DNA of 64,000 bases from Plumapathes pennacea (Eukaryota > Cnidaria > Anthozoa > Antipatharia > Myriopathidae): assembly GCA_964036295.1 (NCBI GenBank), contig OZ038463.1:24105069-24169068 (forward strand), given 5' to 3'. Below are positions 1 to 51,600 of the stretch, in pieces. The position numbers were made by a program, and so were the translations under genes. Each line of letters begins with the position of its first letter. Within the stretch, counting starts at the first letter, position 1. The notes under the pieces were generated by a model, which saw only the letters and a list, made by a program, of their open reading frames with translations, was not told the origin of the DNA and did no database searches.

Positions 1-301
1 CAAGGCCAAATTTCCAAGCAAAATGGGAAGCAGTTTGCTACATCAGTTTGAAGCATCTGGAAACGTAACCTTGACGACAGCAAGAAATGGCAAGTTGCTG
101 TGCGGAGTCACACGCTCGCAGCATTGCCTTAAAACGTTGCGGAAGGTTGATTATTCTACTTTCAGTTCAATCTGTCCCACTATTTTTGTTGCGAGACATG
201 TTGCAAAGAGGCGTTACTTTGAACAAGGCCTTCGTTCGTCAGGATTTTTCAATTTGTACATTCCTGCTGAAACTAAACTTCACCCGGGTGTTTGTTTTCA
301 G
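1..301. other. Probable cadherin intron, no exon seen
   Basis: This is the sequence upstream of the first recognisable cadherin exon. An open frame runs through 23-307, but it has no family similarity that I can see. None of the GT sites I tried in it gives the splice phase (one leftover base) that the exon at 302 needs. I read it as intron. Confidence 0.4.
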
Positions 302-2029
302 GAGTGACCAAAGGTTGCCAATCAACCACAGTGTGTATTCCTGACCCATGCCCCAGTACCGACTGGTGCCATGACGTGTGGCGCGCGCATGTTTGCTTGC
401 CACGTCTCTGCAACAGCAGACCATGCATGAACGGCGGCTCATGTTACGAGGGTGTGGATAGCACCGGTTTTAACAAATATCGATGCGTCTGTCCCCCAAA
501 GTATCAAGGCGTTCATTGTGAAATTGATGGAGCTATCGTGGCGAGCACGCCGGACCCGACTCTTGAGAGCGGTCTAATTATCGGTGAGATTGTTTTACAT
601 AGTGACGTCACTGCAGCCATGTTGTAAGTTTTATGTTGTAAGTTTTATGTTGTAAGTTGCTGCAACATGGCCTCCAACATGGTCTGCGTGTTTTAAACTT
701 CCAGGCATTATTCGCCAAAAAAGCATGATTGCAATTTATAGGTTATGTTAACTGCTTACCGAACACATTCGAAATTCTGAATCACCCAGCATTTTCAAAA
801 CTTTAAAATATTTTCTTCGTCTGAAGTCAGTTTTTATGTTGTTTTCTACTTGCTTTAAAACTAAAAGTTGTATTTACGTGCACGTAGAATATTTCGTAAA
901 GCATGTTTCTATTGTTTGTTTTAATTAAAGTAACAATTTTACTGGATATGTTTATGTCAACTGTAACCAAATACAGAGACAGACAGAATCACAAGCCATA
1001 ACACATCACTGTGTTATGCGTGGATATTTTTGCTTTTATTCGATCTGCAGCAGTCGTATTGAGAATTGAGCTATTCATTTTGGAATACAGAGACGTTGAG
1101 ACCGAAAAAAGTATAAAAAGACAAAGTATTAAATGTCAAAAAAGATGTCTGTCAAGCTCGAACTATTTAAGTCATTGTGGCTCAGTAGAGTTTAACAACT
1201 GACTTTTTTTTCCGCTGCAGGTATTTGTGTGTTAATCGTGACCTTGATTCTGTCGGTGTGTTTGACAATAATACACATCAGATATTCCAGAGGCAAAGCA
1301 CCAGAGGCTACTGTCGACGAACAGCAATTCAAGCGGGACAATGTGGTCGACTATCACATCGAAGGGGGCGGGGAAACGGACGTTGACGATGACGGATCTC
1401 TCTTCAGAGATATGTTTCAAGTTTTTGGAGAGGCGCATACGCCGGAGAAAAAAGCTGCACGCAAACTGGTGACATTTCAACAACCTTATAGAACGCCACG
1501 TGATCTGGATAATTTCCCGGATGTCGCACACTGCACATGCGCCGAACCAGTAAACGCAGAAGTGAGTTGCTCTTGTGTTGCTGGATCACACAGCACAAAT
1601 CCATCGTCAGTTGCGTCGCAAGGCATCCTGGGCATTCGCAGAGAAAGCCCCGAAGGGAGAGAGGACGACAACAGTGACGTCATGAAGAGTGACGTCACCC
1701 ACAGCCACGTCGTAATTGAAACTAGTCGAAGACCCCCCAAACTTCAGCGCGCACGAAATTCTGCACCATGCGGCTGCAAAGCAAGCCTAAGCTCTCCAGA
1801 CACGCCGTCTCCAGTGCATTTTCTGCCAGTGGACGCGATTCAGCTCTATGCATTGGAGGGCTGTGGTACTCCTACAGTTTCGTTGAGCACCTTGGGACAA
1901 AGTGAGAGTGATTCGGCGGGGAGTGAGTTTCCATGGCAACACGAGTCTTTTGAACTGAAGAATAAATTTGACAGGCTTGACAGGATTTACGGTGGGGCTG
2001 ACTCACCCGATAGGTTTTCCTGGAATTGA
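302..2029 (+). CDS. Classical-type cadherin, C-terminal end (partial gene)
   Basis: Two exons are visible: 302-583 (after a TTTTCAG acceptor) and 1221-2029 (after CTGCAG). The phases agree, with one base left over at 583. The first exon encodes a cysteine-rich linker and an EGF-like domain with the core CNSRPCMNGGSCYEG. The join creates one membrane span, roughly LIIGICVLIVTLILSV. The cytoplasmic tail carries DNVVDYHIEGGGETDVDDD, which resembles the p120-catenin-binding juxtamembrane block of classical cadherins. It ends in SFELKNKFDRLDRIYGG, which resembles the beta-catenin-binding block (typically WGPRFKKLADMYGG). EGF modules close to the membrane are usual in invertebrate classical cadherins and absent from vertebrate E- and N-cadherin. 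The cadherin repeats must lie upstream of this window. The inferred role is cell-cell adhesion linked to actin through catenins. A Fat-type cadherin is the alternative, but the catenin-like terminus argues against it. Confidence 0.85.
584..1220 (+). other. Cadherin intron with triplicated donor-like repeat
   Basis: This is the intron between the two visible cadherin exons. It starts GTGAGA and ends CTGCAG. Just inside it, 619-660 holds three copies of a 14-bp unit, ATGTTGTAAGTTTT (the third copy ends GC). Each unit contains GTAAGT, a strong splice-donor consensus. The rest is AT-rich with no recognisable feature. Confidence 0.7.
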
Positions 2030-17430: not shown

Positions 17431-20400
17431 ATGGCGGACGTGCTTGACGAGCTGAGTCCACCAGACATGAAAGCTTTTCTGATTGTTAATCAAGTGAAAC
17501 GAGACCCGCACACTTGGAACGGACAAGGTAAGCACTGTCAAAGACAGCAGGACCAGATTTCGTAATCGTAAATAGAACCAACAAGCTGGGGGAAACCCCT
17601 GCGAATTCTTTCGCTTTTATGTTTGGCGAGACACTGACTTACGGAGTTCATTCGACTAAAATATGGACAGATATAAACTTCATAAATAACACAGCGTAAC
17701 ACTTCTATCAAAGCAGTTTATGCTGCTTGATTCCTGGTTTTGTTTCGTTTCGTTCCACAAATTACACAAGTCAAACAATAAGCAGCAAGACTGCATGACG
17801 TACAAGGATATGCTGATTTTTGTCACGTCCAGCACTTGATGTACTGGTGTTCTAATCGGAAGGGATGACGAAAATACGTTTCGGAGCCAAACTTTAAACA
17901 GATATTAATTAAAGAATGAACCCAGCGCTCTTTCACCTGCGACTGGTATGTGACATTGTTTCGAAACTGAAATAGCTGGTGGGAACACTGTATGCTGCTT
18001 TTGAAGAAGATGATGTTCTCTGGGGATTACCTTTGGAATAATATGCACACAGGGTTCGAAATATTTTTGTGCTCAGCGGTCCGAGGGACAACTATAAAGC
18101 ATGCTTTGGCTGCCCCACCGATTATTTCTTTTATAAAATAAGTAGTCAATAAAATACACGAAAAATTATATACGCCTGTAATATAGTCTCATCTAACATG
18201 GTTTTTTAGTCAATGAGAACGCTTGCAGCATCATAGTTAATTTATAAGATGGAATGCTTGTTTTAATATCGACTTTTTGCTTGTTATGATCAACTGAATA
18301 ATAAAAGAACTGAACACAACGTGGTCGCAGCCTGTGCTGCGGGGTGGCCCTACAGTAACATCAGGGCTTCAAGTCCCCTGGGGGTGGTAGTCAAGTCTTA
18401 ACTGGGGAATATTACAACATCTCTCCCCTAACAGGATTCAATGTATCTTTGAGGTTTCTTGACTGGTCTTCCAGACTTTGTTGTGGTAGGTGGATGTTCC
18501 ACTGTCTGTGGAGATTGCTCAGGTACTTCCAATGGTCTTGGTTCTGGTCTCACTGCATCAGGCGGCTTTGAATGCATAGTAGGAACACTTATCTGTGGAC
18601 TCATAGGTCGGTCATTTGGAACTGAGATGAGCTGTCGCCTATTCCGTCTGAAGACACGGCCGCGTTCATCCTGCACTAGGTAAGACCTTGGTAAGACTTC
18701 AGCTTTACGCCACTCGTGATCCCTGTTTGGTCGAATCCGCACCTTATCTCCAACTGCAAGTGGAGGTAAGTCTCTACTTTGCTTGTCATAGTTCTTCTTG
18801 GAACTGTTCTGGCGATCTTGAAGTACTTTCGCAACTCGATCGGGCTCAACCACTTGTGGCTGTAAGAGACGTCGATGGGTCGGTATCATAGTGCGAGTTC
18901 GTCGACTCATCAGGAGCTGTGCAGGGGATACACCAATATCTTCGAAAGGTGTATTTCGATACTTCAAGAGCCCTTCAAATGGGTCTTTGTTGTCTGCTGC
19001 AGCTTTCTTCAGAATACGTTTTGCAGTTTGTACTGCCCGTTCTGCAGCACCATTGGATTGAGGATACTCTGGTGAACTTGTTGTATGACGGAATCCCCAC
19101 TCACTGGCAAATTGTTTGAACTGGTGTGTAGTGTTGAATAAATTCCTGGTATTGCTGTACTGAGAACCATTGTCACTCACCACCTCATCCGGAATTCCAA
19201 ATCTTGCAAATATCTTCTTCAAGTTGTTGATGAGGCAAGTGGCAGTCTGCTGGCGAAGCAGTTCTATTTCAAAGTACTTTGAATAGAAGTCAGTGACCAG
19301 TAGGTATGTCTGGCCAGCAAATTCAAAGAGGTCTGTCCCGACCACTTGCCATGGTAATCCTGGAATGTCATGGGGATGCAATGATTCTTTCTGTTGTCTG
19401 TTGCGGAAGGCATTGCAGATGGGACAGGAGCTGACTTTATCTTTGATTTGAGATGTCATTGAGGGCCAGAATACGTAATCTCGGGCAAAGCATAGACTTT
19501 TGCTTTCTCCCATGTGTGCTCCATGGATTTCATCCAACACATCAGCTCTCAGTGATCTTGGGACAACTATTCTGTCAAGTTTAAATAGTAGTCCATCCTC
19601 TACACTGAGCTCTTCTCTGTAGCTCCAATACTCTTTGGCCAGTTCATCCACCTGGTCTTTCTCAGCAGGCCAACCCTTAGTGACATAGTCCATGACTACT
19701 CGTGAAGTCTCATCAGCACCTGAACTGTCTCTGAATCTCTGAAGTATGGTGGTTTCAAAACGAAGTTTCTCAATGAGATTGACTCCAATTACATCTTCAG
19801 GTGGGCTGGCTGGTTCAGTATCCTGGAGTGGTGCTCTGCTAAGACAGTCGGATAAGACCTGTTTCTTCCCAGGAACATATCGTACAATGAGATCATACTT
19901 GGTCAGTTTCAGGAGCATCCTCTGTAGTCGGGGTGGGGCATCATTCAGTGGCTTTTTGAATATAGACTCCAGTGGTTTGTGATCCGTTTCCACAATGACC
20001 CTGCGCCCATACATGTATGTGTGAAATTTCTGTGCTCCCCATACAATAGCCAACAGTTCTCTCTCAATATTGGCATACCTTGTCTCACAGCTAGTCAGTG
20101 TCTTTGAGCTGTATGCCACTGGTCTGCCCTCTTGCATGATCACTGCACCCAGTCCAGTGCTGCTGGCATCCACATTTAGAACTGTCTCTTTGCTGTTGTC
20201 AAAGTATGCCAGCACAGGTGCACTGGTGATGACTGTCTTCAGCTTACTGAAGGCCTCCTGTTGTGGTGTGTCCCACACGAATGCTGCATCTTTCTGGGTC
20301 AGTTGTGAAATGGGTCCTTGAAGATCAGCCTTGTGCTCAATGAATTTGTCTAGGTAGTTAAAAGTTCCCAATAACCGTAGCACGCCTTCCTTGTCTGTTG

Positions 20401-23400
20401 GAGCTGGCATTTCGTTGATAGCTCTGATCTTCTCAGGATCTGGCTTTAATCCTTCAGCTGAAAGGACATGCCCAACATACCCTACTTCTGGAACTCTGAG
20501 TTTGAGTTTCTTAGGATTGAACTTCAAGCCCACTTCTCGACTCTTGTCGAGCACTTCCATCAGTTTCTGGTCAATGTCTCTTTGATTATCACCATGTATC
20601 AGGAAATCATCTACAATTATTTCCACAGGAATTCCTGCGAAAAGTCTGTCCATCTCCCTTTGGTAGATTTCTGGAGCTGATGCAATACCAAAAGGGAGTC
20701 TTGTGAATCGGTAACGCCCCCATGGGGTGTTAAATGTGAGGAGCTTGGAACTTTCTTCATCCACAGGAAGTTGCCAGTATCCACTGCATGCATCAAGCGA
20801 TGTGAACATCTTCGCATTAGCCAGGCGATTGGCAACCTCCTCCACTGTGACCATAGGATAGTGGGGTCTCTTCAGTGCCTTATTCAGATCTCTGGGGTCA
20901 ATGCAAATTCTTACTTCTCCTTTCGATGGTGGAGTGTTTTTGCCTTTCTCTTTGCCTTTTCTCTTGTCAATAATTAACATTGAAGACACCCAAGGTGTAT
21001 GCCCTTCCTCTTTCACAATTATGCCATCTTCTTCCATCTCCTCAAGCTTTTCTCGTGCTGGTTCCAACAGAGCAACTGGGATTTTTCTGGGAGGGTGTAT
21101 CACTGGTGGCACTGACGAATCAATTTCCAGATGTACTTCATTGGGTAGTTTGCCAGGTTTGTAACTGAAACAGTCCTGATACTCCTTCAAAACTGCATCA
21201 GTTTTGAAGATACTCTGGTCTTCATCTTGTTTGGATGTTTCTGGGGTGGTTGGGTTAGGCCCATCTTCTGGGATGACTGGATTGGGCTCTGAGGAAGTTA
21301 TGAGTTGCAGGTTCATGAATCTCAAGACTTCTAAATCCAAACAGGCATCACAACTGAGCAAAGGTGTGAAGTCTCCTTCCACAACGAGGTACAACAAATC
21401 CACCTTGCGGTTCTTGTATACTGTGGGAAGGCGTACACAACCTTTTGGGTGTATAGGTTTGGTTGCAAGCCAGCCTTTCAGGGGTTGCTGAATTTTGCGT
21501 AGAGGTACCTTAGTGATTTCTTTATATAAGTGATAAGGGATAACTGTAGCCTCTGCACCTGTGTCTGCTTTGATTTGAACCTCCCTTCCAGCAATCTTGA
21601 CTGAGATCATGCTCTTACTTGTTTTCTTGAGATCAGAAACACTTGCCAATTCAATTGATCCAAAGTAAACATGCACATCCTGACTGCTGCTTTCCTCAGA
21701 CACATTCTCTTGTGCAACAGTGTCTACTTGTGAACTACTCTGACATACCTTTGCAAAGTGTCCCTGTTTCCTGCACTTCATGCATTTTTTTCCATAAGCA
21801 GGGCATCGGTTTGGTTGAGTAAATGGATGCTTGTATCCACAGAACTTACAAGAACGATCACGAGTAGTCTTCATGTGTTGTCCACGATCCTTCCATATCG
21901 GCTGAATTCTTGATGCACCTTCGGTACTTGAACGTGCTGGCGTGGCAAACTTATACTTCTGCAGTTCTGTGGCTTCGAATGTCCTGCAATAGTCATGAGC
22001 ACTCGCCAAAGTGAGATCTGGCTTCTTGAGCAACTCGCCTCTTAGGTCGTCAGACAGGACTCCTCCAACGACACGATCCCTAATCAATGAATCTCGAAGC
22101 TCTCCAAATTCACATGTTAGAGACAGTCGTTTGAGCTCACTTACGAAGCTGTCGATCCGCTCTCCTTCTTTCTGGTTTCGTTGATTAAATACTAGTCGCT
22201 CATATATCACATTCTTGGCCCCTTCACATAATTCTTTGAACTTCTTACAAACAACTGCATAGGAGTCGTTGCTTTCTTCTCCACTGTACACAAAATGACT
22301 GTACTCTTCAATGGCTTCTGGTCCAGCACAATTAAGCAACAGATTTACCTTTAACTTGTCCGGTTTATCGTCCTTCTCCTTGGCTATGAGGTAAATTTCA
22401 AATTGCATCAGAAACTTTCTCCAGTTTTCCGAAGCGTGTGCGTCCAGCACCAATGGACCAGGCTTCGACATGTTTCTTTCATCCATCTCGGGAATTATAT
22501 AGCAGGACGCCGCGACTCACTGTCTCTCGTGGCTGAGTAGGACTCGCTTACATTGCACGGCGTTCACAGCTGCCTTCGGACCTTGTATCCCACTGCTGAC
22601 ACCATGTTTTAATATCGACTTTTTGCTTGTTATGATCAACTGAATAATAAAAGAACTGAACACAACGTGGTCGCAGCCTGTGCTGCGGGGTGGCCCTACA
22701 GTAACATCAGGGCTTCAAGTCCCCTGGGGGTGGTAGTCAAGTCTTAACTGGGGAATATTACAACAATGCTAGCTTCCACTAACTTGGAAAGCAAGCCCTC
22801 TGCAGATACTGTTTCTACATCGAGCTGTTGGAACTGAAATGCTCATTCAAAACCGATTTTTAGTTGGTTACTTTCCGAGATCCGTTAATTTAAAGACTTT
22901 CATGTTTCTGGTTTCATCTTGTAAGTGTAGTAGTCCTCTCCACTCGATCATTGTACCGAATGAAGGACAACGCGGAAACTTAAGTATTTCCTTGTTTGAG
23001 TCAGCGGTCATTTCACAAAACTTAGGATTTTGTAGTTCAATGTAACGCTCGTAAAACTTTTAACACTTAACCCAGAAACGTAATGACTAGGACTCGATGC
23101 TCAAATAGTAGTTTACTTAGTTCGATGCATTCATTTATAACAAAACTTGTGTGTAAGCACTAAAACGAGGCTTGAAAACGATGTGAAAGGTGCAAAACTG
23201 CAAACCAAGTGAAGACTTGGGAAATAACAAAGTCTGTAACTATATATGTCTATGAACATCTGTTAAAATAGATTGTTGTTGCTGTCTGTCCAAACGAATA
23301 GCTCATCCCAAAAGGCAACAACAACAAAAATGGGAACGTAAGGTTTGAAAGGTGCGGTTCAGTCTTCTGAAAGTAAAGCTGTCATGGCTTAATTTCGGAT

Positions 23401-26400: not shown

Positions 26401-29400
26401 TAGTTTAATTTTCTTTTGACATTTTTCTTATTTTTTTTTTTACACCTTGCATGTTTTGTTGTATCTTTGATTGGACAGTTATTTATGTGAGTCTAAGAAC
26501 CAATCACTGGATCTGACCGTTGCTATTATTCATGATAATGATTGAATGAGTGGATCAGCGAGAGCACTGAACATGGATGGTATTGACGCCGTGATCGTGA
26601 ATCCTAGTTTTGAAAGTGATAATTTTCCCAAAGTAGATTGCTTTTTCCGTTTCGAATGGACACCTACCAAAAATGCTCAGTACAATAAGCGGGTATTAAT
26701 CAGGGAGCAAGCCACGAATAGGAAATAAGCACGAGCAGGGTGGAAAAGCTAAGCGTTTAGTCAAAGGTCTTCAAAAATGAAGTTGCTCCGACATCAAGTT
26801 GCATAATGATAACTTTTGGTACCCAGGACGACTGCACTCATGATTCTCACTCAACTTGGGGATACTTTTACGACTGGTTGACAGGGGGCATGTTTTACCG
26901 TGCAGGACGCAATAGCAGTTGTACATTATGACCATAAACAAAGGAAACGGCACTCCAGAAGTCGAATGTCATGATATTTGACATTTTGTTTCGAGCGAGC
27001 ACGTGCTAGGTAGTTTAATTTTCTTTTGACATTTTTCTTATTTTTTTTTTACACCTTGCATGTTTTGTTGTATCTTTGATTGGACAGTTATTTATGTGAG
27101 TCTAAGAACCAATCACTGGATCTGACCGTTGCTATTATTCATGATAATGATTGAATGAGTGGATCAGCGAGAGCACTGAACATGGATGGTATTGACGCCG
27201 TGATCGTGAATCCTAAAAATGAACAATATTAAGTAGTACTGCACTTTAAAAGTGTATCTAGGATTCACTTATTGCAAACAGTGTCGAGTAAAGTAGCTTT
27301 GTGAAAGTAGCCACAGGTTTGGAAGTAAAAAGTGCTGTAGATCGGAAAGTAGAACCAGTTAAACTACTTTCCTTTTCGGAGCAGACGCAGCATTTACTCG
27401 GAAATCTCAGCTTACAGTAAACTAGGATTATTCCTTCCTTCCCCTCACTCCCAGGCCCCCGCCGCCTTTGTTTGTGTTTAAAGATGTGTAGAATTAGGAG
27501 TTCTTGGTCGCCTACTGAACATCTACTGGCTGATAGATAGCGGGTAGCGTTTACAGGATTAGCATTAAAGTACTTGTTGATTTTTTATTAATATTTCTTA
27601 CAATAGAATTCCAAGTAGATCTCGGTTTTCAAGAAGAGAAAATGCCTTTTTCTCCTCTAAGTTTTGTACTCTCACTACGTGAAGGGGTATATAGATTTTA
27701 TCCGATGCGTTAAGCAGATATGCACATACTTAATGTAAACAAGGCGGAACAAGGCGGATAATGAAACCCCTCCGCAAATTTGTAATTGTTTTAGGTGATA
27801 CGGACATCGTTGTGAAAAATCGCAAGATGAGCTCAGATCCTTCAGAGAAAAGTGGAGACAAAAAATCCGAGGGAGAGCTATACAGCAAGAATGGTAAGAG
27901 CTGTCAGTCGTCAGGAGATTTCGTCAAGGCCATTGAGCACCATAAGAAGCACCTGGAGATCGTAACAGAGATCGGAGACAAGCCAGGCGTAGCACAGGCT
28001 CATGGAAACCTCGGAGACTGTTATTATTCTTTGGGGAAGTTCCAAGAGGCCATAGAACAACATAGCATGCTCTTGGAAACCGAAAAACAACTTGGCAACG
28101 AGAAGGGCGAGGGACAGGCTTATTGCAACCTTGGTCACTGCTTTAGTTCCCTGGGAAAGAAAAACAAGGCCTACGAGTACCGAAAGAGGTTTCAGGAAAT
28201 CGGAACGAAACTTAGAGACAAGACATTCCGAGGAAAGGGCTACCGCGACCTTGGAGACTCTTATCGTACTTTGGGAAAGTACGAGAAGGCCTTAGACCAG
28301 CATCAGATGTACTTGGACATCTCAAAAGAACTTGACGACAGGTTAAACGAGGGGAGGGGTTATGGCAGAGTTGGCGACTGCTATTATTCTATGAAGGAGT
28401 ACGCCAATGTTGTCAAGTACAAAGAGGTGCAGCTGAAGATCGCAAAAGAAGTTGAAGACAAGGCAAGCGAAGGGGAGGCTTATGGCGACCTTGGAGACGC
28501 ATATCAGTTTTTGGGTGAGTACGACAAGGCCAAAGAAAACACCCAGAAGTGCCTGGACATCTCAAAACAGCTTGAAGACAAAGCAGGCGAAGCAAAAGCA
28601 CTGAGCATTCTTGGAAGGGTATACTTCAAACAGGAGGACTGCGACAAAGCAGAGGATTATTACAAGAAAAGCCTGGAATGCTACGAGAAAATGTTTGAAA
28701 CAGTCCCGGGCAGTTTTAAGAGCTCCATGCGCGACAACTTCATCAAGACCAATAAATTGTTAAAGGAATGCCTTCTGTTTCAAGACAAGACAGAAGAAGC
28801 TCTGGTCATTTCTGAACGGGGACGCTTGAGAGCCTTAGTTGACCCAATGCCACCCTATTATCCTATCCAAGGCACTGAGGTTACCGTGGCCCAATTGATT
28901 GACCTCCCTGGGATCCGTGAAGTTGTCAAGCTCCTGGACAGCACAGTGCTGTTTTATACTTTAACGGGATCGTTCATTAACACCTGGGTCCTGCAGCCAG
29001 ATGGAAAAATCACGTACAAGAAAGCCTTTGTGAAGCCCCAACCCAGGGAGTATCCATTACCAAGGACCCACGAAAATCCTTATGGGGAACTGGGTGCGCT
29101 GATTAGCAGTGCGAGAGAGCTACTTCGAGCAGGCCGCACTTCTCATATTGAAGATCGCTCACTGGCCTGTATTTACGGCCATGAGAGTGAGCGGCCAAGA
29201 CCAAGGCCGAACCCCATGTTTCCTTTTGCCATGATGCCGCCTTTTCAGAGCGTAAGGCCACCCATGTTTCGAAATGAGCCTGTTGCTCCTGTAAGCAAAC
29301 CAGCACGGGAGGAGCCTCCGCCCAAGCCAAAGAGCATCGATAAATATGAGTTGAAAAAACTTCAACAGTTACACAAGATTCTTTTGGAACCAGTCCTGGA

Positions 29401-30223
29401 GTCTGTCAAAGGGTCTCGATTGGTTGTCGTTCCTGATGACGCACTCCCTCTGATTCCATTTGCCGCCCTGGCGGACGAAGGCGGGCGTTACATAGGAGAA
29501 TCCATGTATGTGAGCTTGTTTCCGTCACTGGCTACAGCAAAGATGATCACAGAGCGCACACAAGAACCCGAAGACCCGTCCGCAAGTCCACTGATAGTGG
29601 GAGATCCAGAGCTGCCAAACTTTGACGACAGGGAAGACAAAATAGAAACGAAAAGGATAGAACAAGTGGATGCCCAACTCAACAAAATCGCCGAAATGCT
29701 TAAAGTCCAACCTCTCAAAGGAAAGAAAGCGACAAAAGATGCTGTTCTTGAACGACTCGACAGCGCCAGTCTGATCCACATCGCAGCTTTTGCAGATTTG
29801 GCAAAGGGAAACATCTTCCTTGCTCCGAGTCCTTGCATCCCGAAAAAGGAGGTTAGACAAAAAGATGTCACGCTGTCCGTCGCAGACATCGAACGCAAGC
29901 ATTTGAGAGCAAAGCTGGTTGTCCTCAGTCTCCGTCAGAGTATCCGTAGCGAGGTTAAACCCGAAAGCGTGATCGGCATCGCTCGTGCATTCCTCGGAGC
30001 TGGTGCCCGCGCGGTCATCGTGAACCTGTGGCAGCATAAGAACGAGGCTACAACCAGTTTCTTGGAAACGTTGTACAAGAACTTCACCGCTGGAGAAACG
30101 GCAAGCGAGGCACTGAGCAAAACCTTGAAGTATCAAAAGGCGACCGTGGATTTCTGGCATCCGTACCACTGGGCATCCTTTACCTTGATCGGCGAAGATG
30201 TGACTCCTTTCCCCAAGAAATAG
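17431..30223 (+). CDS. TPR-CHAT protein with degenerate CHAT active site
   Basis: Exon 1 is 17431-17527 (starts MADVLDELSPPDMK, donor AAG/GTAAGC). Exon 2 is 27795-30223, after a TTGTTTTAG acceptor. Both junctions are phase 1, giving about 841 aa. An in-frame ATG at 27761 lies on the intron side of that acceptor, and one at 27827 could serve as an alternative start. Residues about 60-320 are roughly six 40-residue TPR repeats (motifs such as GNLGDCYYSLGKFQEAIEQH), likely a protein-binding scaffold. A proline-rich linker follows (about 500-545), then a CHAT domain to the end, with GIARAFLGAGARAVIVNLW and FWHPYHWASFTLIGE. CHAT is a caspase/separase-fold protease family using a His-Gly and a Cys motif. 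Here the His-Gly position reads HIAAFAD and the Cys motif reads LSLRQS, so it is predicted catalytically dead. A polyadenylation signal lies at 30234. The 10.3-kb intron carries a retrotransposon. The exon 1 assignment rests on phase and context only. Confidence 0.8.
18259..18419 (-). repeat. 3' LTR of the gypsy element
   Basis: 161 bp, TG at 18259 to CA at 18419 on the plus strand. It appears identical to the copy at 22605-22765. It is flanked outside by ATGCT and inside by the polypurine tract. Confidence 0.95.
18420..18434 (-). promoter_or_regulatory. Polypurine tract of the gypsy element
   Basis: Read on the minus strand, TTAGGGGAGAGA abuts the 3' LTR. A purine run directly before the 3' LTR is where second-strand DNA synthesis is primed in LTR retrotransposons. 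Confidence 0.7.
18428..22486 (-). CDS. Gag-Pol polyprotein, Ty3/gypsy (Mag-like)
   Basis: 1352 codons with no stop. Approximate order: gag (1-200); two zinc knuckles (CKFCGYKH about 210, CMKCRKQGHFAKVC about 233); aspartic protease (IKADTGAEATVIP, Asp-Thr-Gly about 307); reverse transcriptase with IVDD about 625, where most families have YxDD; RNase H (NVDASSTGLGA about 772); integrase with an HHCC zinc finger (HGAHMGES to CPIC, about 987-1022); and a DDE core (GTDLF about 1052, VSDNGSQ about 1104, NGAAERA about 1149). Gag and Pol sit in one frame, so no frameshift is needed. The first ATG, 118 bp inside the 5' LTR, is the natural start. All key catalytic residues appear present, so it may still be active. 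It lies antisense within the TPR-CHAT intron. Confidence 0.95.
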   Translation of the reverse strand: MDERNMSKPGPLVLDAHASENWRKFLMQFEIYLIAKEKDDKPDKLKVNLLLNCAGPEAIEEYSHFVYSGEESNDSYAVVCKKFKELCEGAKNVIYERLVFNQRNQKEGERIDSFVSELKRLSLTCEFGELRDSLIRDRVVGGVLSDDLRGELLKKPDLTLASAHDYCRTFEATELQKYKFATPARSSTEGASRIQPIWKDRGQHMKTTRDRSCKFCGYKHPFTQPNRCPAYGKKCMKCRKQGHFAKVCQSSSQVDTVAQENVSEESSSQDVHVYFGSIELASVSDLKKTSKSMISVKIAGREVQIKADTGAEATVIPYHLYKEITKVPLRKIQQPLKGWLATKPIHPKGCVRLPTVYKNRKVDLLYLVVEGDFTPLLSCDACLDLEVLRFMNLQLITSSEPNPVIPEDGPNPTTPETSKQDEDQSIFKTDAVLKEYQDCFSYKPGKLPNEVHLEIDSSVPPVIHPPRKIPVALLEPAREKLEEMEEDGIIVKEEGHTPWVSSMLIIDKRKGKEKGKNTPPSKGEVRICIDPRDLNKALKRPHYPMVTVEEVANRLANAKMFTSLDACSGYWQLPVDEESSKLLTFNTPWGRYRFTRLPFGIASAPEIYQREMDRLFAGIPVEIIVDDFLIHGDNQRDIDQKLMEVLDKSREVGLKFNPKKLKLRVPEVGYVGHVLSAEGLKPDPEKIRAINEMPAPTDKEGVLRLLGTFNYLDKFIEHKADLQGPISQLTQKDAAFVWDTPQQEAFSKLKTVITSAPVLAYFDNSKETVLNVDASSTGLGAVIMQEGRPVAYSSKTLTSCETRYANIERELLAIVWGAQKFHTYMYGRRVIVETDHKPLESIFKKPLNDAPPRLQRMLLKLTKYDLIVRYVPGKKQVLSDCLSRAPLQDTEPASPPEDVIGVNLIEKLRFETTILQRFRDSSGADETSRVVMDYVTKGWPAEKDQVDELAKEYWSYREELSVEDGLLFKLDRIVVPRSLRADVLDEIHGAHMGESKSLCFARDYVFWPSMTSQIKDKVSSCPICNAFRNRQQKESLHPHDIPGLPWQVVGTDLFEFAGQTYLLVTDFYSKYFEIELLRQQTATCLINNLKKIFARFGIPDEVVSDNGSQYSNTRNLFNTTHQFKQFASEWGFRHTTSSPEYPQSNGAAERAVQTAKRILKKAAADNKDPFEGLLKYRNTPFEDIGVSPAQLLMSRRTRTMIPTHRRLLQPQVVEPDRVAKVLQDRQNSSKKNYDKQSRDLPPLAVGDKVRIRPNRDHEWRKAEVLPRSYLVQDERGRVFRRNRRQLISVPNDRPMSPQISVPTMHSKPPDAVRPEPRPLEVPEQSPQTVEHPPTTTKSGRPVKKPQRYIESC
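22585..22604 (-). promoter_or_regulatory. Primer-binding site of the gypsy element
   Basis: Read on the minus strand, TGGTGTCAGCAGTGGGAT lies directly after the 5' LTR. It begins TGG, complementary to a tRNA CCA end. TGTCAG plus GTGGGAT resembles the 3' end of animal tRNA-Leu (CTGACACCA). The tRNA assignment is from memory of the tRNA consensus. Confidence 0.65.
22605..22765 (-). repeat. 5' LTR of the gypsy element
   Basis: 161 bp, TG at 22605 to CA at 22765 on the plus strand, followed by the ATGCT target duplication. Identical by eye to the other LTR. Confidence 0.95.
22771..26097. other. TPR-CHAT intron, partly duplicated
   Basis: No recognised gene. It contains an ancient tandem duplication with a micro-exon-like motif (23880-24209 and 24860-25222). 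The rest is AT-rich without obvious structure. Confidence 0.5.
23880..25222 (+). repeat. Diverged ~1-kb tandem duplication with micro-exon-like motif
   Basis: Several landmarks appear twice about 1 kb apart in the same order: a GAAACTGAAA...CGGACA block (about 23890 and 24865), CTTCAGTTTCGTAACTA (about 24058 and 25060), and an AG-bounded purine-rich segment ending in a GTAAGAAT donor (CTCGAGGAGTCAAGAAGAG near 24182, CTCAAAGAGTCAAGCAGAG near 25196). The purine segments are 23 and 27 nt by best boundaries. Included between the TPR-CHAT exons they would break the frame, so they look like relics or noncoding splice decoys. Confidence 0.5.
26098..26367. mobile_element. Tc1/mariner-type MITE, copy 1
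   Basis: The ends CAATCCTGGCCAAAAGT and ACTTTTGGCCAGGATTG are perfect inverted repeats, flanked by TA (26096-26097 and 26368-26369). The body is 270 bp and includes a 22-nt G run (26234-26255) opposite a C-rich block near 26167. A near-identical copy lies at 35415-35683. Confidence 0.9.
26399..26606 (+). repeat. Direct repeat ~208 bp, copy 1
   Basis: Almost identical to 27009-27215, differing by one T in a poly-T run. It runs from GGTAGTTTAATT to GTGAATCCTA. There are no inverted ends and no gene, so it looks like a recent segmental copy. Short open frames within it are duplicated with it and are not supported as genes. Confidence 0.85.
27009..27215 (+). repeat. Direct repeat ~207 bp, copy 2
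   Basis: Second copy of the 26399-26606 sequence, 610 bp downstream in the same orientation, inside the TPR-CHAT intron. Confidence 0.85.
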
Positions 30224-30233
30224 AAGGTATTTC

Positions 30234-30239
30234 AATAAA
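30234..30239 (+). terminator. Polyadenylation signal of TPR-CHAT
   Basis: AATAAA lies 10 bp after the TPR-CHAT stop codon. It is a canonical signal, though unusually close to the stop, so downstream signals may also be used. Confidence 0.5.
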
Positions 30240-45600: not shown

Positions 45601-48600
45601 CTCACCATTACCATAGTTTGCGTCCACAAGTGTTACAACGTTTATACAGAACTGAACCTGACATACTTTGTTTTTGTCTTAAACAAAAGATTACCTACTA
45701 GGCTGCTTCAAAACAGAAAGACAGGATACTGCATCCATCCAAGGGGTGGATTAGCAGAAGATGGTGTTGACCTGCACTTCTGGCATAAGTGCGAGGACGA
45801 AGACCGCCTTAGATTGATATTACTCAAATTAGGTAAATAGTGACGTTTTCGCATGACTGTTGAACAGAAAGTAATCGTGTGATTACTTTGGTTTTGCGTT
45901 TGCTACGCTTTTCGAATGATCCTAACAAGTTTAGCAACATTTCTGGCCAATCAAGAGCAAAAACGAAACCTGGTTGCGATATTCTCACGCAGGAAAGTAG
46001 GTGGCGATGGCATGTTCTCGCACTGCTGATTGGTCAGTAAACCAATCGCAATTACTTGGTTTTGGTTTTGCTCGTACTTCTAATTGGTCGGACGTGTTTT
46101 TGCTCGCCTCATTGTTTGGCTCTGTGATTGTTTTGGTTTTGGTTTTTGACTGTTATTTGAAAAGCGCTCAACGACAAAGAATAATGATATCTTAATATAA
46201 GAGTGAATACAAACCGGATTTTGTATGGGCCATTTCCGAAATTCCTGCTGCAATTGAAATATTTGTTCTATTTTCCAGATTGACTATCATTCGCACATCA
46301 AATTGCGCAAGAGCACACGAGACAACAGTAATAACTACAATTCGATGGAAATAACGTATTTTATTATACAAAACAGATTGTACGCATGCTCCGATTGATC
46401 GACTTAGCAGTGAATAACTTACTAATAAACCTCAGTGCGGTAATTTATGGAATTTTGTCTTTCCTCGGTCCGTAACTTACGGTACGCACTGCGCACGCGG
46501 TTAATAAGGTTTATTTATTTCCCATTACAGAATCAGCTTCTCCTAAGTTTAAAATCGCCAACTGGCAGATTTTGGATAAAAATAATGTATGGGTAACATG
46601 CAACTCCGACAAGCAATACCTACAGGGCATGTGGAGAAGCGCGTATGTGCCAGGATCGCATGAGCTACTGCGTCTGATTGAGTACGGAGGGTGCTCTAGT
46701 GCACCGAAACCTTACACAGACCAAGATTCAGATTGTGTAGATGTCGACTGGTCTTTGATACTTAACAGGTAAAATTATCGTCTTGTTTTTGTATTAATCA
46801 CTGCACAAACCATGCAACACGCTTTAATCATATTATAATAATATATTATTAATAATATTTATTGACTTCATTTGAAAAATGGTTTGATTCGTGATAATGA
46901 TGTTGTCTCAGTTGGAACCCTAGTCTGTCTATAACGTAATGATTCAGTGTAGTTTAAAAAAATAGGGCACTTCTGGCTAGGTTTGTTCGAAAATCTTAGG
47001 TACTCATATAACAAGCGCCATTCACGCCGCATTACATTTCAGTTATTTGAGCTAGCTTTACAAATTTATATGTTTTGGACAAATTCCAGATGTTGTTTTT
47101 CATTTCATTCATAATCGAATCAAAAATTAATGTGGATCTGTTCATTAACCTAAATGAAAGAAAACAGGTAAATCCCCTCAAGAAATGACTTCGACGTTAA
47201 CATTCAAATATGTCTTGCTCTAAAAGATGTTACATTTTGCCTTATCTTTTTGCATGTTGTAATAGTTGTTTTATACACTCCAGATATAACGTATGGGCCA
47301 CCTGTCCCTCTGGGCGTTTCCTTCAAGGTTTCTACAAAAGTAACGATCAGTGGCTGCACAACATTGAAACTGGAAGGTGCTGCAAACCCGTAGATCATCC
47401 TAAAAGCTGGGGAAATTGCTACGATCACGGCGTTTCACTGACATTTTATGACAAAGGCTGGAGTTTCTGCAAAGAAGGGTTCTACTTGGCGGGGATTTAC
47501 AAAAGCTACTGCAACGAGATTATCTGTATTGAGACGTTCAAGTGCTGCCGAACGAAAAGTAAGCACATTAAAAATGGGGCTGATTCACTTTGGTAATATC
47601 AAAACCAACCAGAAGGTTTGGTGGGTATTGTTTCAGTTATTCAGTTAACAATGTGAATCCATTTGCTTCTTCGTTTGTTCATTTGTTTACCTCGGAGACG
47701 GCACACATAGGCACATCGTGCGTTTTTGCTGCTTTCAAGCGCCTTTTGTACTCACTTTTTTAAATGATCATTGCTAGTTGTCAGATAAACACTGCGGCTA
47801 CCTGGAAAGAATGCTCAACCTTATTTTCGAGATCTTTCATTTTGATTTCACAAATGAAGGAAAAGGAAAGAATATTTGTATGGCTTTGTCTTGTTTTATT
47901 GCTTTTCGCTTATTAGATAAACGTTTCCTCTTATCTTCTGTACAAATTAAGACGCAATTGCAATTGCAACTGTACTATATGTTAACTGAAAGATTTACCC
48001 ACCACCTTGCACAGCGGCCAGGATATGAATTTGGATGTACATCTGAGGATTAGTATAAATATTTCTTGACCTCCCATATAGAAACAGAAGATGCATTTGG
48101 AGTGACAATCAAGGAAATAAAACCACATGATTGCCAAACTATCAAAATTTCCTGGGAGCCTCCCCTGATCCAGTCAGGTCCAAAGGTCACGGAGGTGGAT
48201 GTCGCTATTAAAGAAGAGGTCTTGGGCAAGTGGATTAAGAATTACTCAGCACCAGTGTTTTCTCAAGAATTAAATATATCGGGCCTTAAGGTGGGAGAAA
48301 ACTACACGGTTCGTGTCTCTGCTACGAACGAATGCGAGGAAAGGGAATCATCAGCTCCAGAAGTTATAAGGATGGAACCAACAGGTTGTACTGTGTGTAT
48401 ACATTTACAGCAGCTCATTTGAATAACATTGGCAAAGTATCAATTTCTCTAATTGAATATTGAAACAATGCTTATTCAAAATACTTTTAATTAATGTCAA
48501 ATGCTCATTCCAAAACTACTGTAGAACCCCGCTATTTCGAACTGTCAAGGGAAGGGAGAAATAGGTCGAGATAGCAGGAAATTTCCACCAAGTTCATTTC

Positions 48601-51600
48601 CAAGGGAAATTGAGTTTGAGTTCGAGAAAGCGGGCTTCTACTGTAACTTAATTAAAATAGAGATACGTCATGTTCTGTTCTCCAATATTTTCGTGTTGGA
48701 AACTGACTTCTCGTGGGCTCAAACATTATTTTATCTTTCCACTTTTTTCAGACTTACCTGATGGAGTTCGATCCATGTACACCGACGTTAAAGGATGCAC
48801 AGTACTACTGCTGTGGGCATCACCAAACACGACCTGTCCTATCACAGGCTACGTAGTTCACTACAGAGGTCTGCAGGAAAATGGTGTTCAAGAAAATTGG
48901 ACTCAACATTACATAGACGATGTCACAGCTACAACTTATAACCTTACTTTGCACTGCGGAATGCGCCACGAAGTGGGTATCGCCATAAAGAACATTGTTG
49001 GAGAGAGTCGGCTTTTAACTCAAGTCATTGGTAAGCTTTCATCATGATTTTCGAAATTATCCGTGTATAAGCTGTGTGATTAATAATGGTAATAGGACTG
49101 AGTGGAATCCTATTTGGTCTGTAATCATACTCGTGATTACGAAATCGGACGACCGCGCTTCGCGGGAAGTCCTCTTACCAATTAATCATAAATATTACAA
49201 TTTCTGAGAATGAAATGATCATATAGCTTCAGCGTCTTCTGCTGTGCTATCATAAAAACAAAGCATCAAGAAGTACTTCATCGCCGATCGATTTTAACAC
49301 GCGCGTACACACGGCTCGGCGTTTGTAAACACGCCGCTTGTTCGTAGTCATCTAGCTCTCAGTTATGTCAACTTAAAATACTTGAGAGAAACAAGAAGCT
49401 AATTTACTCAATGATTTGAGTTGAATGCGGACTTTTGAAGTAAAAGTAAATAATGTGTAAGTTCTGTACACTCAGTGAAAATCAGTAAACCCATCACGAA
49501 CTCACAAATTGAAAGACAGTTTCTTTCGACTTTTCAGGTTTACATTTTTAAACATAACAGGTGCTTTGAAACTCAGAATACTAGTTTATTTTTTCACAGA
49601 AGTTTACAAGGCATGGCAAAGGAAATATTCAAGACCAAAAAAATCTGTATCTATGGGCCTTTTATTCCTGGCTGTAGCGTTTAGGCATAGAGTGGCTAAG
49701 GAAATGAAATCCGATCACGTGGTTTGTCTATAGACGCCATTTTTTTTTCATAGAAACAGCTCAGGCTTTATTTGCATAAAACAGTGAGTTTTGAATCATA
49801 ACGATATTCTGTAAATTTTCCTTTAAGTTGAAACCCGAAAAAAGTAACCCCGTTCTTGGTTCTCTCTTAGATCTGCCATCGGATCCTACGGACAGCAGTT
49901 ATTTTGGTAAGTTTTCTATTTTAAAATATTGGATGACAAAGTATATAAGACATGGATTATATTTGGTAAAACTTGCATCTGGTAAATTTCTTGGATATTT
50001 TTAGGCCCAGCATATATTAATTGTTTTCACCCGAAAACCACAGCGTAGATATCATGACAATTGGTCAAAGAAGTCCCCTCTAGCTCTAGGATTTTGAATT
50101 TTGATTGACGTGTAAGCAAAAATACTATATTTTGATTGGATAATGTTCACGTGCAAGCGGCGTGGAAGCCTTTCTTTTCTTGGCTGAGTTTCAAAGTATG
50201 AACGTGAGATTTTTGTTGATGTATACTTGCGCTCTTGCGGTTTTTGTTCATTATATTCACTTTCGCATTTTTCTTCGTCCACCTGGTTAAAACTAAGCGA
50301 AGGAAAGCAAACATAATCAAACGATACCATTTCGACAAGCTGAAGTGGGGCCCGGCTGGGTCTTTCAGCTTTAACATAAGCTCATCAAGCAACCGTGAAT
50401 TCGTCAAAACCGCGGTGATAATAGCTCAGAATGAAACAGGCCGACTGGAAATTTAGAAAGCTTGGTAGAAGAAACGCAATTTAGAAGACGAAAAACAGGT
50501 AAGTAGTGAAGCGCAGGCTAGATTAATCGTGGCCTGCGATTAGAAACAAATGTTCGAAGTCAAACTGTCAAAACAATTATGCATGAAAATGAGATATGTC
50601 ACGCAATTACTCCCAAACTCAAAATGTAGACTCTGTCATCCTTTTGAAGCAAATGTACGAGTGTTGTAATTATAACTTATAGTTTAATCAGGTTCATTTG
50701 AGTAAATCAAAAGCCAAGTTCCCCATACTGTATAATATCTTTTCGGGTGAGAAATTGAAAGAGAAAATTGAAGTTGATCACTCTTGGGAGTCTCGCTCTA
50801 GTCCAGAGATTGTTTATTCAACAATTCATATAGTGCGTGCGGACACTTGCCACACCAAACTTAAGTCCCAGCATCTGTCGCGTTTTCACGCGACAAAACT
50901 TGTTTACATCTGGTACTGACACGACGTCAGTCGTGATTTCGTCAATCACTGATTACGAAGTTAAGTTCCTGGTTGTTGCATTGCCAGAAATCGTGGACAA
51001 GATGGCGAACGCGCGTGCGCAATGCAAGCGTAATGGCGTCGATACAGCATAAGAAAATGTATGAGAATGTTCAATTTTCGCAAATATATCATTATACATA
51101 TTAGATTTCCACGGTGCCAGCATCTAAACTTGATGAGTGTCGATCGAACAACATAAATAACACAAAAGCAGGTACTGAAACGGAGGCTTACCCACTTCCC
51201 GAGACGAGTGCATTCTCTGCCTGTTTCTCTCCACTTTTCTCATACATTTCCTTATAATCTGCCTCAAATAGCTTCCGGTATTCGTCAACTAACGGGAGAG
51301 CACGACTACGTAGTTCAAGTGCCAGCTTCTGAATATGTTCAAGAGTGTTCGATGTCTTCAAATCGCTCGTAAAAGGCCTGATAATTCCACGCCAAAGTTC
51401 TTCCACAGACGTACTTTTATCCGCAATTTATCGTGAAATCGGCCGCCATGTTTACATGTTCGACTACGGAGGTAAGCGAGAAACAGAAGCCCAATGACTG
51501 CACAATCTCACAGCAGCCGCCATGTTTACTTTTCTTCATCTAGCAATGATTTCTGGGATTTAATTTAGCTCCCAGGCCGCCACGATTTAAATAATTTGCC

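What the first reader, a model, noticed from the sequence alone, without database searches (positions are those of the whole stretch)
27795..30223. CHAT protease domain with both catalytic positions replaced
The His-Gly position of the CHAT motif (usually H-x-A-x-H-G) reads HIAAFAD: Phe at 29789-29791 and Ala next to it. The Cys motif (usually LSACQS or LSCCHS) reads LSLRQS, with Arg at 29933-29935. CGT for Arg is one transition from TGT for Cys. The rest of the domain (GIARAFLGAGARAVIVNLW) is well kept and the frame is open over more than 800 codons. This pattern suggests a pseudo-protease kept for binding or regulation, for example as a decoy for active paralogs, rather than a decaying gene.
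Basis: partly seen in the sequence, partly recalled or inferred. Interest (0 to 1): 0.72.

Follow-up and report, generated by a model that had tools for sequence, protein, structure and literature searches.

The report
Dead CHAT protease in a coral-like genome
One member of a huge family of caspase-like proteins in a coral-like animal genome has lost both residues needed to cut proteins, yet the gene is still intact, which suggests it now works as a binding or regulatory protein rather than as an enzyme.

The parts
27761..30223 (+). TPR-CHAT pseudo-protease gene, main open frame (820 aa from ATG 27761; other possible ATG 27827)
27795..27795 (+). possible first base of an exon after an AG acceptor (TTGTTTTAG|GTG); unproven, and out of frame as a coding start
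27878..28696 (+). tetratricopeptide repeats, TPR_12 type, about residues 40-312 (limits approximate, by eye from Pfam and phmmer stretches)
28697..29353 (+). linker between TPRs and CHAT (residues 313-531), with a low-confidence Pro-rich insert (about residues 460-513)
29354..30220 (+). CHAT domain, residues 532-820
   Evidence: PF12770 E 3e-45 at 532-812; model close to Csx29, separase and caspases
29789..29794 (+). His-Gly position replaced by Phe-Ala (residues 677-678)
29933..29935 (+). catalytic Cys position replaced by Arg (residue 725)
30041..30043 (+). Asp of the W-x-x-x-D motif, kept in 97 of 97 own-genome rows and 14 of 14 plasmid rows, replaced by Asn (residue 761)
30234..30239 (+). 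AATAAA close behind the stop codon, possible polyadenylation signal

Best explanation
The gene encodes a TPR-CHAT protein whose CHAT domain can no longer cut peptide bonds by the family's His-Cys mechanism. It descends from an active TPR-CHAT protease of the same expanded family, lost both catalytic residues and several neighbouring ones, and has been kept under purifying selection as a folded protein. Shown: the residue losses, the intact frame, dN/dS well below 1 against paralogs, and that no other of 155 places read lost both. Predicted: the fold. Inferred, and my choice of mechanism: the TPRs still bind the kind of ligand or partner that active family members bind, and the dead CHAT domain takes part in complexes with active TPR-CHAT proteins or their clients and tunes their activity, much as the pseudo-caspase FLIP(L) tunes caspase-8. 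About 0.93 that it is catalytically dead, 0.8 that it is a retained functional protein, 0.4 that it regulates active paralogs; the confidence below is for dead and retained together.
Against: No expression, no orthologue in another species, no second individual. Selection is relaxed: longest end branch of the tree (0.96), and in codons where three paralogs agree the gene's own branch shows 0.15 nonsynonymous and 0.42 synonymous changes per site in CHAT (68 codons) against 0.03 and 0.31 on the L025 branch (46 codons); linker dN 0.63-0.72 is above or at the top of the active pairs, 0.30-0.64. If 15 of the 68 columns are lost at random, both dyad positions are among them with p 0.046, so a loss aimed at the dyad is only weakly supported beyond general relaxation. 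The neutral simulation has no indels or mutation bias. dS above 1 is near saturation. No active partner lies nearby: among the matches listed the nearest other CHAT on the same contig is over 5 Mb away, unlike the cyanobacterial pairs.
Confidence: 0.72

Rival explanations
1. Structural scaffold without any tie to active CHAT proteases: the TPRs do the work and the dead CHAT domain is a folded end cap.
Against: CHAT dN/dS 0.23-0.32 and 53 of 68 near-invariant CHAT columns kept, more than an idle cap would seem to need.
Confidence: 0.3
2. A gene at the start of decay: function was lost recently and the frame has not yet been hit.
For: Longest end branch of the tree; more nonsynonymous change on its own branch than on an active one; frames with in-frame stops occur in the family.
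Against: Changing 15 of 68 conserved codons neutrally needs roughly 0.1 substitutions per site (my estimate), at which 0 of 400 simulated frames stayed open. Three copies flagged with an in-frame stop keep the dyad (L022, L048, L102).
Confidence: 0.15
3. Substrate decoy: the dead domain binds but does not cut the substrates of active paralogs.
For: A common fate of pseudo-proteases (general knowledge).
Against: Conserved residues beside the dyad changed too (E684N, G728I, G730S, G736S, D761N), so the cleft is probably remodelled; this is read from sequence, since no coordinates were available for measurement.
Confidence: 0.12
4. Non-canonical catalysis by other residues (migrated dyad).
For: Cys692 and His538, 673, 714, 759, 800 and 803 exist in the domain.
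Against: The only Cys lies in the stretch SPCIPKK between the two motifs, not at the family position; its distance to a His could not be measured.
Confidence: 0.03

Closest known systems
Coral TPR-CHAT (TTC28-like) expanded family
   Same: TPRs then one CHAT domain; hundreds of copies in this genome (304-366 first-look candidates); expansions reported for Acropora, Montipora and Pocillopora (passages of PMC12314368, PMC9145168, PMC6208414).
   Different: 152 of 155 other places read keep the His-Cys dyad; this one lost both residues.
Csx29 (TPR-CHAT of Craspase)
   Different: The Craspase TPR-CHAT has an active dyad H585/C627 and works in a CRISPR complex (PMC9729208, passages).
Eukaryotic separase
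   Different: Active enzyme; 17% identity in that alignment; no shared role shown.
FLIP(L) pseudo-caspase
   Same: Catalytically inactive paralog of an active caspase-fold protease (PMC7586951, abstract).
   Different: Death-effector domains rather than TPRs (recalled); regulation of an active partner is shown for FLIP(L), only guessed here.
Cyanobacterial pseudo-orthocaspases
   Same: Caspase homologues with the HC dyad replaced and widely kept in photosynthetic bacteria (PMC6426788, abstract).
   Different: p20-domain family with Tyr-Ser replacement, not CHAT.

Membership tests
TPR-CHAT (TTC28-like) family | TPR array followed by a single C-terminal CHAT domain | tested here: met
   PF13424 E 3.8e-45, PF12770 E 3e-45 at residues 532-812
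TPR-CHAT (TTC28-like) family | falls among the own-genome family by phylogeny | tested here: met
   nested among 94 own-genome rows, 16-row set with SH-aLRT 97; long branch, quick search
Active CHAT proteases (His-Cys dyad) | catalytic His of the HxAxHG motif | tested here: not met
   Phe677
Active CHAT proteases (His-Cys dyad) | catalytic Cys of the LSxC motif | tested here: not met
   Arg725
Caspase/separase fold | predicted fold matches solved CHAT, separase and caspase structures | tested here: met
   [not shown]
Pseudo-proteases (kept inactive homologues) | lost catalytic residues with an intact gene under purifying selection | tested here: met
   intact 820-codon frame, CHAT dN/dS 0.23-0.32 against five paralogs; no orthologues available
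Pseudo-proteases (kept inactive homologues) | no proteolytic activity and a shown regulatory or binding role | not testable with these tools
   needs bench work
FLIP(L)-like regulators | binds and modulates an active paralogous protease | not testable with these tools
   no interaction or expression data

The most novel reading that the evidence does not exclude
Pseudo-CHATs are a recurrent class that I found no report of. In the coral-like genome the dyad was damaged in at least three lineages as I read them (window gene both residues; L241/L249 Cys to Pro; L207 Cys to Ser), and in cyanobacteria a TPR-less pseudo-CHAT clade sits just before a CHAT gene with an intact dyad. Dead CHAT subunits would then be built-in regulators of active CHAT proteases, as FLIP(L) is for caspase-8.
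Probability: 0.3. Interest if true: 0.72.

Novelty: new variant of a known kind. Interest (0 to 1): 0.45.

Why it matters
Corals carry hundreds of TPR-CHAT genes whose TPR and CHAT functions are not well understood (PMC12314368, passages), and it is open whether they act as proteases. That the dyad is kept in 152 of 155 other places read suggests that most are under selection as enzymes, and an exception that lost both residues but stays intact gives a natural inactive counterpart to test against. A TPR-bearing CHAT protease activates a gasdermin in a fungus (PMC12881547, passages), so a dead member is a candidate brake. The cyanobacterial pseudo/active gene pairs make the regulator idea testable in bacteria.

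Tried and rejected
Close relatives outside the genome: viral contigs with the whole protein and genome contigs with the CHAT domain gave no relative, phage records none. Viral contigs with alignment A1 gave three loci (L113-L115), not used further. A second dyad: only one Cys in the domain. A young-duplicate or allele explanation: best paralog about 45% identical over 508 aa and at most 59% over the catalytic 130 aa. Literature for an inactive CHAT: 'chat domain'+'catalytically inactive'+'protease' gave one paper, judged unrelated from its listing; 'TTC28'+'CHAT'+'catalytic' none; 'TPR-CHAT' or 'pseudoprotease' (30 of 340 listed) and 'chat domain'/'pseudoenzyme'/'caspase' (20 of 65 listed) showed no pseudo-CHAT in the rows listed. 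Whether vertebrate TTC28 keeps the dyad could not be tested; one TTC28 paper searched for CHAT, caspase and protease had none.

Limits of the counts. The census is not a random sample: it was drawn from the best-scoring candidates of three searches (135 of 317, 85 of 366 and 150 of 304 scored), not all of which were read, so strongly degenerate CHATs are under-represented. Of the first 97 loci two pairs are the same place (L018/L027, L019/L035), hence 95 + 60 = 155 places; the conservation count used all 97 rows. The tree used 94 of those rows after identical rows and rows with a stop inside the CHAT match were left out. In one search the linker pair L025-L058 (13 codons) is left out of the ranges I quote.

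Full report
What is there. The + strand frame 27761-30223 codes for 820 residues (829 codons from the preceding stop). Pfam finds TPR repeats over residues of about 40-312 and a CHAT domain at 532-812 (E 3e-45). The start 27795 is one base out of frame and can only be a guessed splice acceptor (TTGTTTTAG before it). An AATAAA follows the stop at 30234.

How unusual is it? The window lies at C2:24105069-24169068 of an unnamed 290-Mb genome in 24 contigs. With hundreds of CHAT copies (317 first-look candidates, 366, 304) it resembles stony corals, where 276 and 304 copies are reported in two Acropora and up to 362 in a Pocillopora (PMC12314368, passages); the species itself is not known to me. 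I read the catalytic part of 155 other places: 95 (97 loci, two pairs being the same place) and 60 more. 152 have His and Cys. Three lost Cys only: L207 (Ser, C2:33522508, frame 189 aa), L241 (Pro, C11:5763392, frame 1144 aa) and L249 (Pro, C11:5790378, frame 582 aa). None lost His. Among the places read the window gene is the only one with both lost. The sample favours high scorers, so degenerate copies are under-counted.

More than two residues changed. Of 68 CHAT columns that are at least 95% one residue in the 97 rows, the window gene differs at 15 (L633I, A636V, E639Q, H677F, G678A, E684N, C725R, G728I, G730S, G736S, D761N, M768L, F771L, L775F, P806S); the next worst row differs at 7 of 69 and the median is 1. 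Eight of the 20 such columns in the three motif loops changed against 7 of 48 elsewhere (Fisher p 0.03, loops chosen after looking). If 15 of 68 are drawn at random, both dyad positions are included with p 0.046. The excess at the active site is therefore modest; the whole domain is relaxed relative to the active copies.

Is it decaying? The nearest paralogs are only about 45% identical over 508 residues and at most 59% over the catalytic 130. In the tree (98 rows) the gene sits beside 14 rows that carry the dyad (SH-aLRT 85) with the longest end branch, 0.96. By Nei-Gojobori counts CHAT dN/dS against L025, L026, L030, L033 and L037 is 0.35/1.27, 0.32/1.37, 0.34/1.45, 0.37/1.33 and 0.40/1.26, ratios 0.23-0.32. 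Seven pairs of active copies give 0.14-0.26 (0.25/1.21, 0.20/0.83, 0.21/0.82, 0.24/1.75, 0.25/1.29, 0.24/0.92, 0.14/0.63). In codons where three paralogs agree, the gene's own branch has 0.15 nonsynonymous and 0.42 synonymous changes per site in CHAT (68 codons) against 0.03 and 0.31 on the L025 branch (46 codons). In the linker its dN is 0.63-0.72, against 0.30-0.64 in six active pairs. So purifying selection persists but is relaxed, in the linker as well as in CHAT; dS above 1 is near saturation and these are paralogs. Simulated neutral drift of 0.05 per site leaves the 820 codons stop-free with probability 0.005, and of 0.1 in 0 of 400 runs (no indels modelled). Losing 15 of 68 conserved codons by drift needs roughly 0.1 (my estimate). 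Conversely, three places flagged with an in-frame stop (C9:10992026, C11:5208005, C2:9412957) keep the dyad (L022, L048, L102).

Mechanism. Shown: loss of the dyad, intact frame, dN/dS below 1. Predicted: fold. Inferred: the protein binds rather than cuts. Because conserved residues beside the dyad have changed too, I think a partner-binding role (mixed complexes with active TPR-CHATs, or with their TPR ligands) is likelier than trapping of uncut substrate. [quoted passage not shown] I found no report of it for CHAT in the searches, which list only part of their matches. A TPR-bearing CHAT protease activates a gasdermin in the fungus Podospora anserina (PMC12881547, passages; the genus name in full is recalled).

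A precedent found on the way. Of the 80 best cyanobacterial CHATs (503 relatives found, 80 kept) 75 have both residues and 5 do not: L135 Tyr/Cys, L166 His/Ala, L182 Gln/Cys, L188 Met/Cys, L190 Asn/Gly. The five form one clade (SH-aLRT 99) and differ from the other rows at 7-14 of 88 near-invariant columns (the 75 others: median 1, maximum 9). Read from the first Met they are 296-469 aa long, and Pfam finds CHAT but no TPR in 5 of 5. Behind L190 and L188, after 12 and 17 bases, a gene begins whose first part is TPRs in 2 of 2 tested. In 5 of 5 genomes another CHAT match follows on the same strand within about 3.1 kb, and all five of these have the dyad. These genomes hold 39-69 CHAT matches each, often clustered, and the five pseudo-CHATs are one clade, so this is one inherited arrangement and not five independent ones. 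Still, it shows that pseudo-CHATs can be kept for long beside an active-looking one. The window gene has no such neighbour: the nearest other CHAT listed on its contig is more than 5 Mb away.

Verdict. A well-supported pseudo-protease in a known, expanded family: a new variant of a known kind. Its function is open, and I would not claim more than the regulator idea as the likeliest of several.

Noticed in passing
L135, L166, L182, L188, L190 (cyanobacteria): A clade of TPR-less pseudo-CHATs with drifting dyad residues (Y/C, H/A, Q/C, M/C, N/G), each followed on the same strand by a CHAT match with an intact dyad in 5 of 5 genomes.
   Followed up: partly
L241 (G000:C11:5763392-5763772) and L249 (G000:C11:5790378-5790758): Two neighbouring own-genome CHATs with Pro at the catalytic Cys position and intact His; the first lies in a 1144-aa open frame, a second pseudo-CHAT lineage.
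   Followed up: partly
L207 (G000:C2:33522508-33522858): CHAT core with Ser at the Cys position in a frame of only 189 aa, inside a cluster of copies with the dyad; perhaps a partial gene.
   Followed up: no
window 26423-26606 and 27032-27215: A 184-base direct repeat, 98% identical, spaced 609 bases, just upstream of the gene.
   Followed up: no
window 18428-22516, - strand: Single 1362-codon frame with reverse transcriptase, RNase H and integrase domains, a Gypsy-like retrotransposon polyprotein.
   Followed up: no
window 277-2029, + strand: EGF-like exon followed by an open stretch with a weak cadherin-tail match below cut-off, possibly the end of a cadherin-like gene.
   Followed up: no
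window 48054-49047, + strand: A fibronectin type III match at 48054-48419 and a weaker FN3-like match below cut-off at 48661-49044.
   Followed up: no
[not shown]
   Followed up: no
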